Source of the DNA: Candidatus Altimarinota bacterium
Lineage (GTDB): Bacteria > Patescibacteriota > Gracilibacteria > BD1-5 > UBA6164
Assembly: GCA_013350285.1 (NCBI GenBank)
Contig: JAAXWG010000002.1
Location: 62,001 to 126,000, forward strand
Reading direction: 5' to 3'
Length of the DNA stretch: 64,000 nt
Below the pieces are notes generated by a model, which did not search any database, was not told the DNA's origin, and was given only the letters and a program-made list of their open reading frames with translations. Both the position numbers and the translations under genes were made by a program. Below are positions 43,494 to 52,840 of this stretch, piece after piece. Position 1 is the first letter of the stretch. Each line of letters opens with the position of its first letter.

Positions 43494-44708
43494 TTATTGG
43501 TTAATATTTTTTAAAACTCTTCTTCTGATAGATTCAGACAACCATCCAACTCCAAGACATACAATTCCTCAAGTAATAAAAACAATTGCTCATTCCATCT
43601 TACTATTTTCCAAAAATGCAAAATATCTTCCTATAAGATAAATAGCAAAAAATATCATAGAAAGATTTATATATCCTGCTTTTTCTTTTTTTATTCACAA
43701 AAATACAAAAACTCAAACTATAGCAAGGTAAACGAGGTTCATCCCTACAACATAAAAATATCCCCAAAAATCAACAAAAATCATTCATTGAGGCTCAAGT
43801 CCATTATATTGTTGTCTTGTTAAGCTTGTATTAAAATAAGCAAAAAATATCAAAGCAAGAACTATAATACTTCCAAGATAAAAAGGTAAATCTCTATCAA
43901 TTTCAATTTTTTTGTTTTGAATATTTGATATTCCTACTCAAAAAACTCATAATACAAGAAAAATAAGAGTTATGATAAGAATATTTATATTAAATTCTCA
44001 GTAATTTCCATACATCCAGAAACTTTTGAAAGTAAAGGCAAAAAGTCCTCAAAGAAGTCAAACAATTCCAAGAGCAGAACCTACGAGTCAAAATTGTTTA
44101 TAATCAAATTTTTCATAATATCTCACAAGAGAGAGATTAAAGAAGCTTATCACAACAAATAAAAGTGCTATAAGAAATCAAGAAAGAGTGTAATTTTCTC
44201 AAATATAGGAAAAGATAAATGCATAGACCAAAACAAGACCAAGAGAAAAAATAGAAGTATATCTCGTATAAAAAGCAAGAGGAATGACTCAAATCATCCA
44301 AAGTAAAAGTGCTGAGGAATAATTTCCTCCTACATTGTATATTTGTCCGAGAAGAAATATAGCAACTCCATAGCTTATACTTCAGAGAAAAATAAGTGAG
44401 TGTCCTGTTTTTTTAAATCATTCTTTTTTGTATGCAAAATAATATCAAACTCCATAAAATAAGAGAGTGATAGCAATAATAAATATTGTTTTTACAAGAC
44501 TTGTAAAATTACTCCAATTTGATGCAATAAGTAAAATAAGCCCAAGACCAATAGCAATTGCTCCTATTGTCATAAATATCATCATAAATCTTCCTCCTCT
44601 ATTTTCTCGTGAATCTTTTTGATACCAAGCCTCTATATTTTGTGCTATTTTCTCATCTATGATATTGTCTTTGATAAGCTTTTTCAGGTCGATTTTTATT
44701 TCGCTCAT
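43494..44708 (-). CDS. DUF2157-family membrane protein
   Basis: 404 residues. The cytoplasmic N-terminus (IDEKIAQNIEAWYQKDSREN) matches the DUF2157 start, followed by about twelve hydrophobic helices, the first being FMTIGAIAIGLGLILLIASN. The ATG at 44708 (MSEIKIDLKK) is preferred over an in-frame ATG 30 bp earlier because it matches the domain start. It pairs with the GDYXXLXY gene. The role is not established. Confidence 0.85.
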
Positions 44709-45243
44709 AAAAAAGTATTTAATAAATAATAATCCCATTATAAGCTTTTATTCTCTTTTTCAAATTTAAAAGTTGAAAAGAGAAAGTGAAAAATATTTTT
44801 GACAAATGTTATTTTTTGTAAATTTTAATAATTTATTATGAGCTTTCTCCTCGTGTCATTCCTGCGAAGGCTTAAATCATTATATAAAAAAAGGACTTTG
44901 TCTATTTTAATAGATTCCTAGCTTCCTAGGAATGACAAAAAAACAAAAGTAGAAATTTATTATGGGTTTTCTCCTCGTGTCATTCCTGCGAAGGCAGGAA
45001 TCTATAAGATTAAATCATTATATAAAAAAAGGACTTTGTCTATTTTAATAGATTCCTAGCTTCCTAGGAATGACAAAAAAACAAAAGTAGAAATTTATTA
45101 TGGGTTTTCTCCTCGTGTCATTCCTCTGCACTCGTTCCGAGTATAAACTCCAGCAGGAATCTATTTTTTTATTCCTTATAAAAATCATAAAAATGGAATT
45201 ACTTTTTTATAGATTCCTAGCTTCCTAGGAATGACAAAAAAAA
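44709..45243. repeat. tandem palindromic elements alternating with decayed CRISPR repeats
   Basis: No gene. Three palindromic units with ends GTCATTCC and GGAATGAC lie at 44855-44936, 44979-45074 and 45117-45235. Between and after them are 27-nt fragments of the CRISPR repeat (44944-44970, 45082-45108) and the partial repeat 45244-45274. A still more decayed piece lies at 44834-44850. The fragments have lost the TCTAC arm (AAAAC instead), so the crRNA stem cannot form. The interior of the units varies in length, and unit 3 has a different insert. Confidence 0.8.
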
Positions 45244-45779
45244 CAAAAGTAGAAATTTATTATGGGTTTTAAATACTCAAAATAAGAGTTTAAAAAACTC
45301 AATCTACAAAAGTAGAAATTTATTATGGGTTTTAAATATTCCTTAAAATAGAGCTAAGAAAAACAATCTACAAAAGTAGAAATTTATTATGGGTTTTAAA
45401 TAACTGAAGAGGAACATATAAAACAATATCTACAAAAGTAGAAATTTATTATGGGTTTTAAATTGACAAGTATTCTCAAAAAGAATAGCTATCTACAAAA
45501 GTAGAAATTTATTATGGGTTTTAAATTGAGATAATTTAATTTCTATTATTCCTATCTACAAAAGTAGAAATTTATTATGGGTTTTAAATTTATTCTGCTT
45601 GATTTATTTCATTAGAATCTACAAAAGTAGAAATTTATTATGGGTTTTAAATAAAAATATAAATATTTAATATTATCTCACATCTACAAAAGTAGAAATT
45701 TATTATGGGTTTTAAATTATTACAGATTGAGAAGAGTATATTAATCTACAAAAGTAGAAATTTATTATGGGTTTTAAAG
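45244..45779 (-). CRISPR. type V-A-like CRISPR array, eight spacers
   Basis: Eight 36-nt repeats at 45302, 45366, 45428, 45491, 45554, 45617, 45682 and 45744, plus a truncated one at 45244-45274. On the minus strand they read ATTTAAAACCCATAAT then AAATTTCTACTTTTGTAGAT, with the Cas12a-type stem TCTAC/GTAGA and a TTTT loop at the 3' end. Spacers are 26-29 nt. Transcription on the minus strand, as for the effector gene, puts the leader at 45780-46008. The leader-proximal repeat differs only in its first base. Repeats are identical within the array; decay is confined to the far end. Confidence 0.97.
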
Positions 45780-46008
45780 GGCGATTTTTTGTAGAATAAG
45801 CCAAGAAGATACAAATAATTTATCTTGCAAAATTATGACTTTTGGCTTATTCATAGGTTTGTCTAAAAATTAAGACTTAGGTTTACATTTTTTAAAAAAA
45901 CACACAACGGAACTTCCACTTTTAATAATTTTTTATTAAAAGTTTTAGATTATTTTAAAGAGCTTTTTGTATAAAAGTATAGTATAAAAAATAGACAAAA
46001 AAGCAAAT
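45780..46008 (-). promoter_or_regulatory. probable CRISPR leader
   Basis: A 229-bp gene-free AT-rich stretch adjoining the intact end of the array. It contains an 11-bp inverted repeat GAATAAGCCAA (45794-45804) / TTGGCTTATTC (45842-45852), the first arm only 14 bp from the first repeat. I cannot mark a promoter with confidence. Confidence 0.6.
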
Positions 46009-46359
46009 TTATTTTGCCTCTTCCTTATTTTTGTAATCTACAATTTTTTGGATCAAATCATAGGGAATTTTTTTATCCAAAGAAAACTGAATAGTTCATT
46101 TTGAAATTTTGAAATCTTGTAAATCTGACTTAAATTTTTCTATGGTTTTTGGTCATGGAAAAAATCAAATATGGTCTTTAAAAGCTCCAAAATGCACAAA
46201 GTTTTTTCATTTGTGTTTAAAAGTAGGAATTCAGTAATTTATGCTTTGTGTAAGTTGTGGATTTGTCTCACTAATCAGTTTTTTGATATTTTCAAGAATT
46301 ATTTGAATATCTTGTGGAAACTGGGAAATATAATCTTGTATAGTTTGTGGGGTTTGCAT
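46009..46359 (-). CDS. DUF1801-family protein, copy 1
   Basis: 116 residues. TPQTIQDYISQFPQDIQIIL, QLTQSINYGIPTFKHKGKNF, VHFGAFKDHIGFFPGPKTIE and SKGTIQFSLDKKIPYDLIQK match the DUF1801/YdhG frataxin-like fold. The biochemical role is not established. It lies between the CRISPR leader and a second DUF1801 gene (6 bp gap). Confidence 0.85.
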
Positions 46360-46365
46360 AAAATT

Positions 46366-46761
46366 TTATTTAATATTTATTTCAAGCCAATCTTTTAGGA
46401 TTTCCTTAATTTTTTCAGAGTTTTTTAGCACTTTTTCTTTGTTTTCAAAGCTCATATATCCTCTGATATCTGAACTCCAATAAATAAAATCTGAGTGTTT
46501 GTCATATACTGGACTTCCCTTTTTGTTTTCTTTGATAGATGCTCAAAAGTGCAAAATAAGTTTCACGATATGTTCTTTGTTTAGCACATTAAAAGTTATT
46601 CTATCAAGTCAATTATATTCATAATTTGGAGCATTCCATTTGATATTTTCTCATAAATTTTGCTTTGTTTCCAAAATAAGTTTTCTCAAAGTTTCAATGA
46701 TTTCTTTTTGTTCTGGTTCAAGAGAATCAAGGAAATTTTGGAGAGTTTTATATTTTTGCAT
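46366..46761 (-). CDS. DUF1801-family protein, copy 2
   Basis: 131 residues. MQKYKTLQNFLDSLEPEQKE, GENIKWNAPNYEYNGLDRIT and KEHIVKLILHFGASIKENKK follow the DUF1801 pattern; it shares the fold but only low identity with copy 1. Its start codon lies 25 bp downstream of a lone CRISPR repeat (46787-46822), which would therefore be in its mRNA leader. It is the first gene downstream of the CRISPR effector on the minus strand (about 200 bp). Confidence 0.82.
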
Positions 46762-46786
46762 TTGTTTGGAGGTTAGAGAGGTATAT

Positions 46787-46822
46787 ATCTACAAAAGTAG
46801 AAATTTATTATTGGTTTTCAAT
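46787..46822 (-). repeat. orphan CRISPR repeat
   Basis: Minus-strand reading ATTGAAAACCAATAAT then AAATTTCTACTTTTGTAGAT. This is the 36-nt array repeat with only two changes, both outside the hairpin, so the crRNA handle is intact. No second repeat flanks it. The sequence after the handle is ATATATACCTCTCTAACCTC, then the DUF1801 start. Confidence 0.93.
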
Positions 46823-46965
46823 ATTAATTTATTTTTTAATTTTTATTTATGAAAATTGAAGTTTGAGAAAATTTTTCTAAAATTTTAGCAAAATTGCCTC
46901 AAAAACACAAAATAATAATAAGTTATCTAATAGTTTTTATGTATTACTTGATGATTATTTTTATT

Positions 46966-49900
46966 TTACTTAATTTTTCATCAAATATTATAAGATCCAT
47001 TATCATCTCAATTTTTAATTAAATCTAAATTTAGTCATTCTTTTTTATTGTTCTTAATATTTATTGAATTATCTTTTCAAGAAACAAATCAGCATTCTTT
47101 ACAAGTTATTACATTGTTTTCTCTCTTAATATGTTTTTTTCATCATTTTCAGCAGATAGGACACTTTGAACTTGTAAACTTTGGGCTTATAAAATAAATA
47201 ACTCAAAATTGTTGATATTGGTATTTGTATTTTTCTTTCAATAAATCTGTATAATTTCTTACATTTCAAAAACTTGGAACTAAATGTAAAATTCATTTTT
47301 CAACAGAAATTTTAAATAATTTTTTAAATAACTGCATTTCAAAAAAATGGTAAGTTCAAACTCAAGCTAAAGCCAAATTATCTTGTTTTTTTAAATCCAT
47401 TTCTTCATCAATTTTGGAATTTAGTATTGAATCTCAAGATAATCAATCTTTTGAAAAATACCAAGCATTTGATAAATCTTCAATTGCAATTTTTACTTTA
47501 TAATCATATTCTTTCATTAAATGAACTATTACTCAAATTATATTTGCAACAACTCATTTTTTCAAATCTTCACTTGCATCAAGTTCAGTTGTTAGTTTCA
47601 TTAAATTTTGTTTTTCTCATTCTGATAAAGTTTTATTATTTTTCAATTTTTCATAATTTTCAAACATTTCTTCAAAAATATTCATCGGTAAGTCTTCAAA
47701 ATGATGTCACTCTTTATATGGTGTTATTAACTCTTTTATATTATTTTGTCTTTCTTCTTTTGTTTTATATTTATTTAAAAAACTTAAAACTCATTCTTCA
47801 TTGGAAGACATTTGATATTGAAGTTTTCTAATATAAGCTAACTGCTTTAATTTTACATTTTGCTTATTCGTTCAAGTTAGATTTCAATTTTCATCTTTTG
47901 CTTCAAATAAAGATAAATCAACTAAATATTTATTTCATTCTTTGTCTGACTCAACTTTTAAATTTGTTAAATCCAAAATTCATTCTGTTCTATTATTTTT
48001 ATATTCCCAATTTTTAGAATTATCATTAAAATGTTTTGTATAAATATCAAAGTTTTGAATAACTCATTTTTTATTTGTAATACACAAAGTTGCAAGTTGT
48101 TTAATTCATCTATCAATTCAAAAAATATAATAATCTTCTAAACTATCAAAATATGGATTTACTTTTTCTTTGTTAAATTTTTGAACTGATTCATTTTGTT
48201 TTGTTTGATCTATTGAAATTTTATTTTGTTCTTTTCTTGTTGTGTAATCATTGTTTTGTGGAATATACTCAACTCAAATATTTGCAAGTAATTGTAATCT
48301 TCAAAAACGATTTATAATTCAAGATTTGTTTGGTTTTAAATTTTCTTCATTTGGTTGTCTATAAAATATACTAAACTCTGGATGTATTCTATATCAATCT
48401 CATAAAAATACTTTTTCAAAATTTTTTGTAAAGTCATTTTTATTTTCCTCTTTTTTGCTAGAAATATCTTGATTTATCAATGGAAATAATAAACAATCTT
48501 CTTTATGTATTAAATTCTCTAAATTTTCTTTTGAAATAGAGGTTTCTATTAATTTATATCATTTTTTATCAACTTCTTTTTCAATCTTTTCATAAGTATC
48601 ACAATTATCAAAATTCCATCAAAAATCTTTCCAATTTTGTTCTACTGCAATTTGAGAATTTATTAAAGAATGTTTCAAATGTTTCAAAAACTCTTCTTTA
48701 TATCAAACCCATTTTTCATTTTCATCATATATTGAAACTTCTCTATGTTTATATTGAAAATATCAATGAAATTTCTTTGAATCTTCTCATAAAGGATTTT
48801 TTATAAATTTATTGAGTGCTTTTGATGTAAAAGAATTTATTTCAAAAACTTTATATTCTCAATTTCATAAATTATTTTTTATTTTTTCTCTTGTATCTTT
48901 TCCGTTAAGTTTTAGAGTTAAAATATATTTGTCTTGATTTTTATCTTCAATTATTATTCAATAGTCAGTAATTTTATTTAGTTCATTTTCTTCTTTTAAT
49001 CATTCCCTTATTGAAGCCAAAGTTCTTCAAATAAAACTTGCTATTCAAATATGAGAATCCTTTTTATCAACTAACTTTTGTGTTAAATTTCTATATTTAT
49101 CAATTTTATTTTTTTGTTGTCATCTTAGAAGTCATAAAGATTGCTTTGATTTTGTAAAACTATCAAATATATTTAGAATATTTTGTTCTTTAGTATCTAA
49201 ATTTTTAAAATACTTTTTTTGTAAGTCTTTAATATTTTTTCTTTCATCGGTGTTTAAATTTAAGTATTTTATAATATTTTCAACTTCATTTTTTTTATTA
49301 TTTTTTTCTATTTCATCTGATAATTCTAAGAAAGTTTCTTTAATACTATCAATAATTTCTTTTTCATTATTTGGTTTTCAATACTCTATTGTTGCTAAAT
49401 TTTCAGCAATAAAAAGTAAATTTGCATATAAATTAAAACTTGAATTTCAAACATTTATATTAAAATTATCATTTAAGTATTTTTCACAAACATTTTTTGG
49501 AAAATCAACATCTCTTTTTAGACTTCTTGCTAAATTTTCCCAAGAATAATCAAAAGCTGATTTAATAGGATATTTTTCAAGTGAAAATTTTTCTTTATCT
49601 TTGCATTCAAGATAATCTTTTCAAATATCAACAGATTTTCAAAGTAAATCAAATTTATTTAAAATATCTTCATATTTTAAATTATAATTCTTCTCTAAAT
49701 ATTTAGATAAATTATATTTTACCGAAAAAGGAATTGTTTTTGGTTTAAAAAGTTGTATTAACTCAATAGAGTAAGGATTTTTTGAATTATTTAATAAATA
49801 TATTTTTTCTTTTGAATCTTGTTTTAAATAATTTTTTATATCCTCTTCGCTTTTCTTTAAAAACTCTATTATTCATAAATCTTTAATTCATTCTTTGATT

Positions 49901-50733
49901 TCTTTATCAAAATTATTTGGTTTTTGAACTGCTGTATAATAGTTTAAACTAACTTTTCAATAAGGAACTTGACTTCAATTTGCTTCAAAGTATTCTCTAA
50001 TTTCTTTTCATAAATCAAGCAAATCATTAATTTCTTTATTATTTTCATTTCAAGAAAAATCATTCACTCTTTTAATATCTCAAGAATTTTCTTTTTTTCA
50101 TGTTTCAAATTGTATAGATTTATTAAATAAAGGTTGTAAATATTCTTCACTTATTTTTAACAGTTGTAAAAATACTTTTCTAAAATCTATTAAATCAGGT
50201 TTTGTATGAGAACTATTATTTGGATTATTAACAGCATTTAGATATTGTTCTAATTTTGGTTTAAAAACATTTATTAAATAATCACTTCTTGAAATGATAT
50301 TTCACCAATAATTTATTATTAATTCTTTATTATATCTTAATGATGACAACTTAATTTGATTAGCTTGTGGTTGTTTAACTCATTTTTTATCTTTCTTAAA
50401 AGCATCAAATTTTGCTTTTCTTGCAAGTATTTTATAATAATCTTTATTTACAGATATTAAATCATATCTTTCATACATATTCTTCCAGTCTCATAACTGA
50501 TTTTCTAATCAAGAAATAAACTGATTTATTTTATCAATCAATTCTTTTCTAGTATCAAATTTTGATTTATCTTTTGAGTTTACCTCTTTTTTTATATTCT
50601 CAAAAGATTTATTTACTAAATCACTAAATTCTATATGAGTTTTTAATTCTCATTTTTTATTTGGTTGGGTAAGCCCAAACCTCACAGTTTTCCTAACCTC
50701 ATACAAATTTTGAATATTTTTACAACTTTCCAT
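46966..50733 (-). CDS. cas12a2: type V CRISPR effector, Cas12a2-like RuvC nuclease
   Basis: 1255 residues. The N-terminus NLYEVRKTVRFGLTQ matches the Cas12a/Cas12a2 start. RuvC-I is YYIFGIDRGIKQLATL (Asp874), RuvC-II KVKIAIEDLSNAWYF (Glu1085), RuvC-III IKNGDDNGSYNIG (Asp1243). Between II and III is a zinc ribbon: CPICGK (Cys1191, Cys1194) and TCKECGF (Cys1211, Cys1214). Gaps of 211 and 158 residues fit Cas12a2 (215 and 150 in the Sulfuricurvum protein, from memory) and not Cas12a (about 85-93 and 250-270). The family uses V-A-type crRNAs; RNA recognition triggers collateral cutting of RNA and DNA. UGA is a frequent Gly codon, so the gene is adapted to this host. The start ATG directly follows a terminator-like hairpin. 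Confidence 0.88.
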
Positions 50734-50821: not shown

Positions 50822-52840
50822 TTATTTCCCTTTTTCCTCTACTCTCTCCCCTTTCAAAACCCAATCATCGAGAGACACTATTTTGACTTGCACCATATCG
50901 CCTATGTGTATGTCAGGAGATGTATCAAAAAACACTTCTTTGAAATTTCTTGTCCTTCAAAAAAATTGATTTTTTGCCTCTCAGACGACAAAAACTTCTT
51001 CTTGTCTTCCAAGCATAAGCTGGTTTCTCTTTTGGAGAGATTTTTTGAGAGCATTATTGAGTATATGCCATCTCTCTGCTTTTATCGTATCTGCTACATC
51101 ATCAGGATAAAGACGACTTGCAAGAGTTCAAGGTCTGACACTATATCTTGCAATATAAGCAAAATCAAATTCACATTCTTCAAAAGCTCTCAAAGTTGCC
51201 AAAAAATCTGCTTCTGTCTCACCACTAAATCCAACAATTATATCTGTAGAAATAGCAAAAAGTGGGTCTTTTTTTCTCAGATACTGTATCATTTCTTTAA
51301 AATCTTCATAAGTATGCCTTCTATTCATCTTTTTGAGTATCGTATTACTTCCCGACTGGAGAGCAAAATGAAGATAATTACAACTATGCTCAAGCTCAAA
51401 ATGTGCATCCAAAATATCATAAGTCATATCGTGCGGATTGCTTGATGTAAATCGTATTCTCTCAATTCATGGAATTGCATTTACTTCATTGAGAAGCTCA
51501 CGAAAAGGAGATACAAAACTCAAAGAATCTATTATGGTGTCTATTTCTTCCCAACTTTCTGCACGAAAATGATTTTTGTTATCAATGACTTCTTCCCTAT
51601 TCCACGGCTTTGAAAAAATAATAGTTTTCCAATCTTCATGTTTTTTATAATCAAGGATTTGATGAGGATTATCTTCTAGCACGACATCTAATTGTATTTT
51701 TTTTGCAAGGATACTTTTTTTATCTTCTCCGTGCTCAAGAGTAAAAAGGATTTCTTCAAAAAAATCATTTCAAAAAATATTTTCAAGATATCTAAGAGTT
51801 CCTTCTTTCATAGCAAGAGTTCTTGAAGTAATGATAAAAAGTTTGTGTCCTTTTGTTTTCCATTTTTTGAGTATTTCAAGCACTCAAGGGAAAAGTTTGA
51901 GTTGCATATAATTTTCTTCAAAAAAACAAAACCATTCTTTTTTCAAAACTCCATCTCCATTGAAATCAAAATCTTTTAAATCTTCATATTGAAAGTTTTT
52001 TTGATATTTCATATTATAATTTTCTATGACATGAGATTCCCAACATTTCACCAGTACTTCATCTATATCTATCCCTATTTTTAATATTTTTTGTCCTTTC
52101 CATTTACTTTTTTCTTCATCCCACAAATCTTTTTGTGCTTGTTTTCCATAACTATTGACATTTTGTCCGAGCAAACTTATTTCTTTTGCTCCATTTTTTA
52201 TAGCTTCCCTACATTCACTCAGTATTTCCTCTTTGTCTCTGCTGATTTCACGACCTCTCGTATATGGCACAATACAATAACTACAATAATTATCACATCC
52301 TGTCTGAATAATAATAGATGCTGAATTTGGATTTTCTCTTTGTTGTTTGAGTTTGAGATAATCATCATATTTGTCTTCTTGTCCAATTTTTTCTCAAAAA
52401 ATATGGGAAAGGATAAAAGGAAGATATTTTATTTCTTCTATTCTAAAGGTAAAATCCAGATTTTTAAGACGAGGAAAAAGCTTATCATCATTATTAAATA
52501 TTTCACTTATTTTTTTAAGTGCTTCTATTTTTTTTGCTGTTTCTCTTTTTTGCTGCTTTTCTCAATATTTTTCATTTATTCAAGTTTTTCTCACCATACA
52601 TCCTGTGATTCAAATTATCGTCTTTTTTCCATTTTTTTGCTGTTTTTCAATATCACGAATCATACTAAAAACTCTATCTTCTCATTTTTTTCTTACACTA
52701 CAAGTATTAAAAATAATGAGATCTGATTGCTCAAAATCTCAAACTTTTAAAAATCATGATTGTAAAAGAAGCATATTAATTTTTTCGCTATCAGCTTCAT
52801 TCATCTGACAACCAAAAGTTTTAATACAATATTTTTTCAT
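50822..52840 (-). CDS. miaB: MiaB tRNA methylthiotransferase with an inserted HAD domain
   Basis: MiaB adds 2-methylthio to i6A37 of tRNA. Its usual parts are present: N-terminal UPF0004 domain ([43 protein letters not shown]), radical SAM cluster [66 protein letters not shown], and a C-terminal TRAM domain. At 672 residues it is ~220 too long. Between NVNSYG and the [13 protein letters not shown] segment lies a HAD-type domain (about residues 250-430): [10 protein letters not shown] (motif I), FIITSR (motif II), [11 protein letters not shown] (motif IV). Both junctions are stop-free even in the standard code, so the fusion is not an assembly of two frames. Confidence 0.94.

What the first reader, a model, noticed from the sequence alone, without database searches (positions are those of the whole stretch)
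46787..46822. Orphan CRISPR repeat in the 5' leader of a DUF1801 gene
A 34/36 match to the array repeat, with the whole crRNA handle intact, sits 25 nt upstream of the DUF1801 ATG and on the same strand. If transcribed, the effector could bind or cut this leader. The mRNA 5' end would then become a crRNA-like guide (ATATATACCTCTCTAACCTC onward). This recalls CRISPR-regulated RNA units that use degenerate repeats, but I found no good match of this guide to the effector promoter or array leader in the window.
Basis: partly seen in the sequence, partly recalled or inferred. Interest (0 to 1): 0.72.

Follow-up and report, generated by a model that had tools for sequence, protein, structure and literature searches.

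The report
Stranded Cas12a2 repeat before DUF1801 gene
A single, almost intact CRISPR repeat sits just in front of an ordinary gene next to a Cas12a2-type immune nuclease. It is most likely a leftover of a rearranged CRISPR locus, though the nuclease could still cut and cap that gene's message, a trick so far known only from engineered circuits.

Summary
Window 46787-46822 matches the array repeat at 34 of 36 positions, the 19-nt crRNA handle is perfect, it lies on the minus strand, and it is 25 nt upstream of the DUF1801 ATG. Chance expectation is zero. The effector next to it is not classic Cas12a. It is a Cas12a2-family nuclease (RNA-triggered collateral nuclease; 732 bits to the solved Cas12a2, no match to any classic Cas12a chain), in a genome that reads TGA as Gly. 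This removes the CreR/CreA-type reading, which needs a guide that represses a promoter: no target for the guide was found in the cas promoter or genome, and the repeat is not degenerate. The only relative with this effector (G035) has cas12a2-methylase-HNH-cas4-cas1-cas2-leader-array and no orphan repeat. Here that middle block is gone (no Cas1 found in the genome), replaced by orphan repeat plus two DUF1801 genes. A third genome in the class holds a decayed Cas12a-family locus that also left stranded repeats, one with an intact handle. Best reading: a stranded solitary repeat that Cas12a2 could process if the leader is transcribed. A selected switch on DUF1801 is not excluded and mirrors engineered 5'-UTR direct-repeat circuits, but nothing here shows selection.

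The parts
46787..46822 (-). orphan (solitary) CRISPR repeat, 5'-ATTGAAAACCAATAATAAATTTCTACTTTTGTAGAT-3'; 34/36 to array repeat, handle AATTTCTACTTTTGTAGAT exact
46762..46786 (-). 25-nt stretch between repeat and DUF1801 ATG (would be the guide of a crRNA-like product): ATATACCTCTCTAACCTCCAAACAA
   Evidence: no second site in genome or viral contigs
46366..46761 (-). DUF1801-a gene, 131 aa (code 25)
   Evidence: Pfam PF08818 E 4.8e-9; no close relative found in the class, best 36%
46009..46359 (-). DUF1801-b gene, 116 aa; 48-68% identical orthologues at unrelated loci in five relatives
   Evidence: Pfam PF08818 E 2e-13
46823..46965 (-). gap between effector stop and orphan repeat, 14.7% GC, no similarity to the array leader, no further repeat
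46966..50733 (-). Cas12a2-family effector gene, 1255 aa with TGA=Gly (63 TGA codons)
   Evidence: PDB 8D49 E 1.3e-218; catalytic and Zn-ribbon residues conserved; PADLOC Cas12a-type models
45780..45968 (-). array leader, aligned well to the G035 leader; ends next to the first array repeat
45239..45779 (-). main CRISPR array, 8 intact repeats and 1 clipped repeat, 26-29 nt spacers
44830..45125 (-). degenerate trailer end of the array: repeats clipped at both ends with 138-bp tandem units of GTCATTCCT-type palindromes

Best explanation
It is a solitary Cas12a2-type repeat stranded by rearrangement of the CRISPR locus. The ancestral layout was probably like G035 (cas12a2, methylase, HNH, cas4, cas1, cas2, leader, array). 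In this lineage the methylase-to-cas2 block was lost and two DUF1801 genes came to lie between effector and leader, with one repeat copy left just upstream of them. Shown: repeat identity, layout in both genomes, no Cas1 found in the genome, intact leader beside the main array and not beside the orphan. Inferred: the order of events, and how the repeat copy came to lie there. If the leader is transcribed, Cas12a2 should treat it as pre-crRNA: cut 5' of the handle, keep the handle and hold the next ~24 nt, which end 1 nt before the ATG. That would be a by-product, probably lowering DUF1801 translation somewhat, with no evidence of selection for it.
For: Relative G035 (75% identical effector) has the full locus and no orphan repeat anywhere with an exact handle. 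No Cas1 in the own genome. Leader next to the array aligns with the G035 leader, while the sequence upstream of the orphan aligns no better than shuffles, so the orphan is not the leader end of a split array. No neighbouring repeat at the array period. DUF1801-b has orthologues in relatives at unrelated loci, so it is not a CRISPR gene by origin. G129, same class, shows a decayed Cas12a-family locus with one handle-intact repeat and two half-decayed ones, one of them 1.7 kb away beyond purE, so stranded repeats with an intact handle do occur without a working system. Two mismatches both falling outside the 19-nt handle has a 22% chance under neutrality.
Against: The handle is perfect. The fit to the gene is close (same strand, 25 nt before the ATG, so a 24-nt guide would cover the whole leader after the handle). 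How exactly a single repeat reached this place is not explained. Only one comparable locus is available.
Confidence: 0.6

Rival explanations
1. Natural cis switch: Cas12a2 free of crRNA binds and cuts the DUF1801 leader at the repeat, stays on the new 5' end and covers the start region, so DUF1801 is made only when Cas12a2 is scarce or filled with crRNA. The gene would report on, or respond to, the state of the immune effector.
For: Perfect handle and correct strand; 24-nt guide ends 1 nt before ATG; too little room for a promoter downstream of the repeat; Cas12a2 processes its own crRNA and uses a ~24-nt guide (PMC9811890); engineered direct repeats in 5' UTRs lower expression with Cas12a-class enzymes, and dCas12a stays bound to the cut mRNA 5' end (PMC12191184, PMC9943656).
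Against: No sign of selection beyond the handle (22% by chance); not conserved where testable; DUF1801 has no known link to CRISPR (no paper with both terms in the library; no PADLOC match); one of the two reported processing residues is changed (Su K784 to Asn, R785 kept).
Confidence: 0.22
2. CreR/CreA-like unit: the repeat and the following nucleotides make a crRNA-like guide that represses the effector promoter or another gene.
For: CreR is reported for type V-A (PMC12737573); single repeat near the cas gene.
Against: No seed plus PAM match to the cas12a2 promoter, best chance-level seeds lie elsewhere; genome matches do not exceed reversed-pattern controls; guide pairing with the cas12a2 start no better than shuffled guides (16 of 200 as good); effector family is reported to be activated by RNA and not by complementary DNA (PMC9811890).
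Confidence: 0.05
3. RNA anti-CRISPR (Racr) brought by a mobile element, decoying Cas12a2.
For: Solitary repeats act as RNA anti-CRISPRs, including against type V-A (PMC10651486).
Against: It lies in the host's own cas locus beside the array; no phage or plasmid relative of its neighbours found apart from one distant plasmid DUF1801; no viral contig carries this handle plus guide.
Confidence: 0.04
4. The 3' end of the repeat serves as part of the DUF1801 promoter (TAGATATATACC as -10 region), so the RNA does not contain the repeat.
For: A TATATA-like hexamer spans the junction of repeat and leader.
Against: The scan lists no promoter-like site there; its hits in the region are at chance level.
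Confidence: 0.06

Closest known systems
Solitary repeat units (SRUs) of CRISPR repeats (PMC10651486)
   Same: single intergenic repeat, at least 90% identical over its length, no second repeat within 100 bp
   Different: lies in the host cas locus between effector and array, not in a mobile element away from cas genes
CreR / CreA crRNA-like regulators (reviewed in PMC12737573)
   Same: one repeat with a spacer-like sequence near a cas gene
   Different: repeat nearly intact, no promoter target found, effector of an RNA-activated family
Engineered direct-repeat-in-5'UTR control (5' DREDGE, PMC12191184; yeast mRNA degradation tool, PMC9943656)
   Same: same anatomy: Cas12a-class direct repeat in the mRNA leader of an unrelated gene
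   Different: those are built by hand in eukaryotic cells; here natural, function untested
Cas12a2 (Sulfuricurvum SuCas12a2, PDB 8D49) and Cas12a3/Cas12a4
   Same: full-length match, RuvC and Zn-ribbon residues, same kind of repeat handle
   Different: 40% identity; three of the four aromatic clamp positions are no longer aromatic, so placement between Cas12a2 and Cas12a4 is open

Membership tests
Cas12a2-type effector | full-length sequence relation to a characterised Cas12a2 and not to classic Cas12a | tested here: met
   8D49 E 1.3e-218, residues 8-1251; no classic Cas12a chain even at E 10
Cas12a2-type effector | RuvC acidic residues and four Zn-ribbon cysteines | tested here: met
   D874, E1085, D1243 and C1191, C1194, C1211, C1214 invariant with SuCas12a2
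Cas12a2-type effector | pre-crRNA processing residues K784 and R785 of SuCas12a2 | tested here: inconclusive
   R kept (R809), K replaced by Asn in both P0001 and P0002 (residues from PMC9811890)
Cas12a2-type effector | aromatic clamp for dsDNA (Y465, Y1069, Y1080, F1092) | tested here: not met
   aligned residues Ile, Trp, Ser, Leu: one of four still aromatic; so Cas12a2 in the narrow sense versus Cas12a4 is not settled, and the report says Cas12a2-family only
Cas12a2-type effector | RNA-triggered collateral cleavage with purine-rich PFS | not testable with these tools
   needs protein
CreR/CreA | spacer-like part with partial match beside a PAM in a cas or toxin promoter | tested here: not met
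CreR/CreA | effector that binds DNA as a repressor (type I or Cas12a) | tested here: not met
   effector belongs by sequence to the RNA-activated Cas12a2 group
CreR/CreA | expressed as a small RNA | not testable with these tools
   no RNA data
Solitary repeat unit | full repeat match of at least 90% in an intergenic region | tested here: met
   34/36 = 94% between two genes
Solitary repeat unit | no (partial) repeat over 70% identity within 100 bp | tested here: met
   best nearby gapless score 20/36
Racr (RNA anti-CRISPR) | encoded by a mobile element, away from cas genes | tested here: not met
   sits between cas12a2 and the array; no close phage or plasmid hits for neighbours
Split array (leader-proximal repeat cut off by an insertion) | array leader upstream of the orphan repeat | tested here: not met
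   leader lies next to the main array; upstream of the orphan no similarity above shuffles

The most novel reading that the evidence does not exclude
A natural CRISPR-repeat leader switch: a Cas12a2-type nuclease processes and caps the mRNA of a non-cas gene through a single direct repeat placed 25 nt before its start codon, so the gene's output reads how much effector is free of crRNA.
Probability: 0.2. Interest if true: 0.78.

Novelty: new member of a known kind. Interest (0 to 1): 0.4.

Why it matters
If only a relic, it documents how a Cas12a2 locus loses its acquisition genes and strands repeats. If functional, it would be a natural counterpart of engineered direct-repeat mRNA control and a new way to couple a cellular gene to the loading state of an RNA-triggered immune nuclease, without any guide-target pairing. 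The test is simple (5'-end mapping and a handle mutant in a reporter).

Tried and rejected
Guide target search in the window for seed, PAM and total match and in the genome for both halves of the guide at up to 3 mismatches: no excess over controls. RNA duplex of guide with local transcripts against shuffled guides: cas12a2 start and array leader not significant; a bulged pairing inside DUF1801 (1 of 200 shuffles as good, four targets tested) is too irregular for a crRNA target. Idea that the two mismatches build a new hairpin: energy gain 0.1 kcal/mol only, and 6% of random double changes do as well. Split-array idea: leader test negative. Degenerate repeats at the array period around the orphan: none. 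More loci: genome-contig scans with protein and alignment, viral contigs, phages and plasmids and 380 genomes of the phylum gave no further effector locus; the class search gave G035 and weak remnants. Synteny of the chromosomal site by the neighbour at 43494-44738: only distant homologues.

Full report
What is there. The window comes from a small genome (1.28 Mb, G000) whose genes read through with TGA as glycine. On the minus strand the order is: miaB, effector gene (50733-46966), a 143-nt gap, the orphan repeat (46822-46787), 25 nt, DUF1801-a (46761-46366), DUF1801-b (46359-46009), array leader, array. The orphan is 5'-ATTGAAAACCAATAATAAATTTCTACTTTTGTAGAT-3', against the array repeat 5'-ATTTAAAACCCATAATAAATTTCTACTTTTGTAGAT-3': 34 of 36, with the 19-nt handle exact. 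Shuffles expect none, and in the whole genome only the eight intact array handles and this one match the handle exactly.

The effector is not classic Cas12a. Its sequence matches, among all solved chains, only 8D49/8D4A/8D4B (E 1.3e-218 over nearly the full length), the Sulfuricurvum Cas12a2 structures (identity of these entries from own knowledge; the enzyme is described in PMC9849127 and PMC9811890). RuvC acidic residues and the four Zn-ribbon cysteines are kept. Of the four aromatic clamp positions reported in PMC9849127 one is still aromatic, so it may belong nearer Cas12a4 (PMC12851939) or a side branch; I call it Cas12a2-family. PADLOC places it with one group of Cas12a models far above the others. 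Such enzymes are reported to be triggered by RNA and not by complementary DNA, and to process their own crRNA to a ~24-nt guide. A promoter-repressing guide in the CreR manner is therefore not expected.

Does the guide have a target? The nucleotides after the handle are ATATACCTCTCTAACCTCCAAACA. In the window no site combines a long seed with a PAM at the cas promoter. Genome searches with either half at up to three mismatches find no more sites than the reversed pattern (7 versus 16; 7 versus 7; both counts include the orphan itself). RNA pairing with the effector start is no better than with shuffled guides. Viral contigs hold no exact copy of the guide core. An antisense transcript of the locus itself would carry the self flank AUCUA, which is reported not to activate Cas12a2.

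Relatives. Among 353 genomes of the class and 380 of the phylum only one other genome, G035 of the same family, has this effector (75% identity). Its locus is cas12a2, C5 methylase, HNH, cas4, cas1, cas2, leader, array, and every exact handle in that genome is in the array. The own genome has no Cas1 match (Cas2 and Cas4 were not searched genome-wide, but none lies in the locus). The leader of the main array aligns with that of G035 over about 185 nt, ending near the first repeat, while the DNA upstream of the orphan shows nothing above shuffles. So the orphan is not the leader end of an array broken by an insertion. DUF1801-b has 48-68% identical orthologues in G035, G003, G122, G030 and G004, at other places in those genomes. 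DUF1801-a has only distant relatives in the class. Both have host-like GC (26.8%) while the effector is 20.7% GC with 63 of 66 glycines as TGA. This fits host genes placed inside a foreign, shrinking CRISPR locus. The order of events is inferred.

A useful parallel was found in G129 (same class): the C-terminal scrap of a Cas12a-family gene, a repeat with an intact handle beside it, and two half-decayed repeats, one 1.7 kb off beyond a purE-like gene (the purE label is from reading the sequence). There a handle has survived although the effector is broken. An intact handle is thus weak evidence for use. Likewise, two changes both missing the 19-nt handle happen by chance in 22% of cases.

Likely mechanism. 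The 25-nt gap before the ATG leaves no room for an ordinary promoter, so any DUF1801 transcript from upstream, including read-through from the effector gene, carries the repeat (inference; consensus promoter scans are at chance level). Cas12a2 should then cut 5' of the handle and keep hold of the downstream RNA; its guide channel would cover the leader up to 1 nt before the ATG. Engineered direct repeats in 5' UTRs behave this way with Cas12a-class enzymes. Whether this is selected or incidental cannot be settled here. I favour incidental (0.6) over a switch (about 0.2), because the arrangement is seen once, is absent where it could be checked, and DUF1801 has no known tie to CRISPR.

Verdict. 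A real but probably stranded solitary repeat; new member of a known kind, with one attractive untested reading.

Noticed in passing
50822-52840 (-): miaB-like gene with a HAD-type hydrolase domain inserted in frame between two parts of the radical SAM domain (protein residues about 270-380; Pfam).
   Followed up: partly
44830-45125: Trailer end of the array: repeats clipped at both ends, with 138-bp tandem units built of GTCATTCCT/GGAATGAC palindromes in place of spacers.
   Followed up: partly
45780-45870 (-): Array leader holds a long inverted repeat (AATAAGCC...GGCTTATT, folding energy -16.5 kcal/mol for the 95-nt stretch) just before the first repeat; the same region aligns in G035.
   Followed up: partly
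46966-50733 (-): Effector gene encodes 63 of 66 glycines by TGA at 20.7% GC, against 13 of 36 at 30.3% GC in the neighbouring miaB: looks transferred from a more AT-rich code-25 lineage.
   Followed up: no
L015 3286-5508 (-): In G035 a C5 cytosine methylase and an HNH nuclease gene lie inside the Cas12a2 locus between effector and cas4.
   Followed up: no
L049 3706-5470: G129: decayed Cas12a-family locus with C-terminal remnant and three repeats in different states of decay around a purE-like gene.
   Followed up: partly
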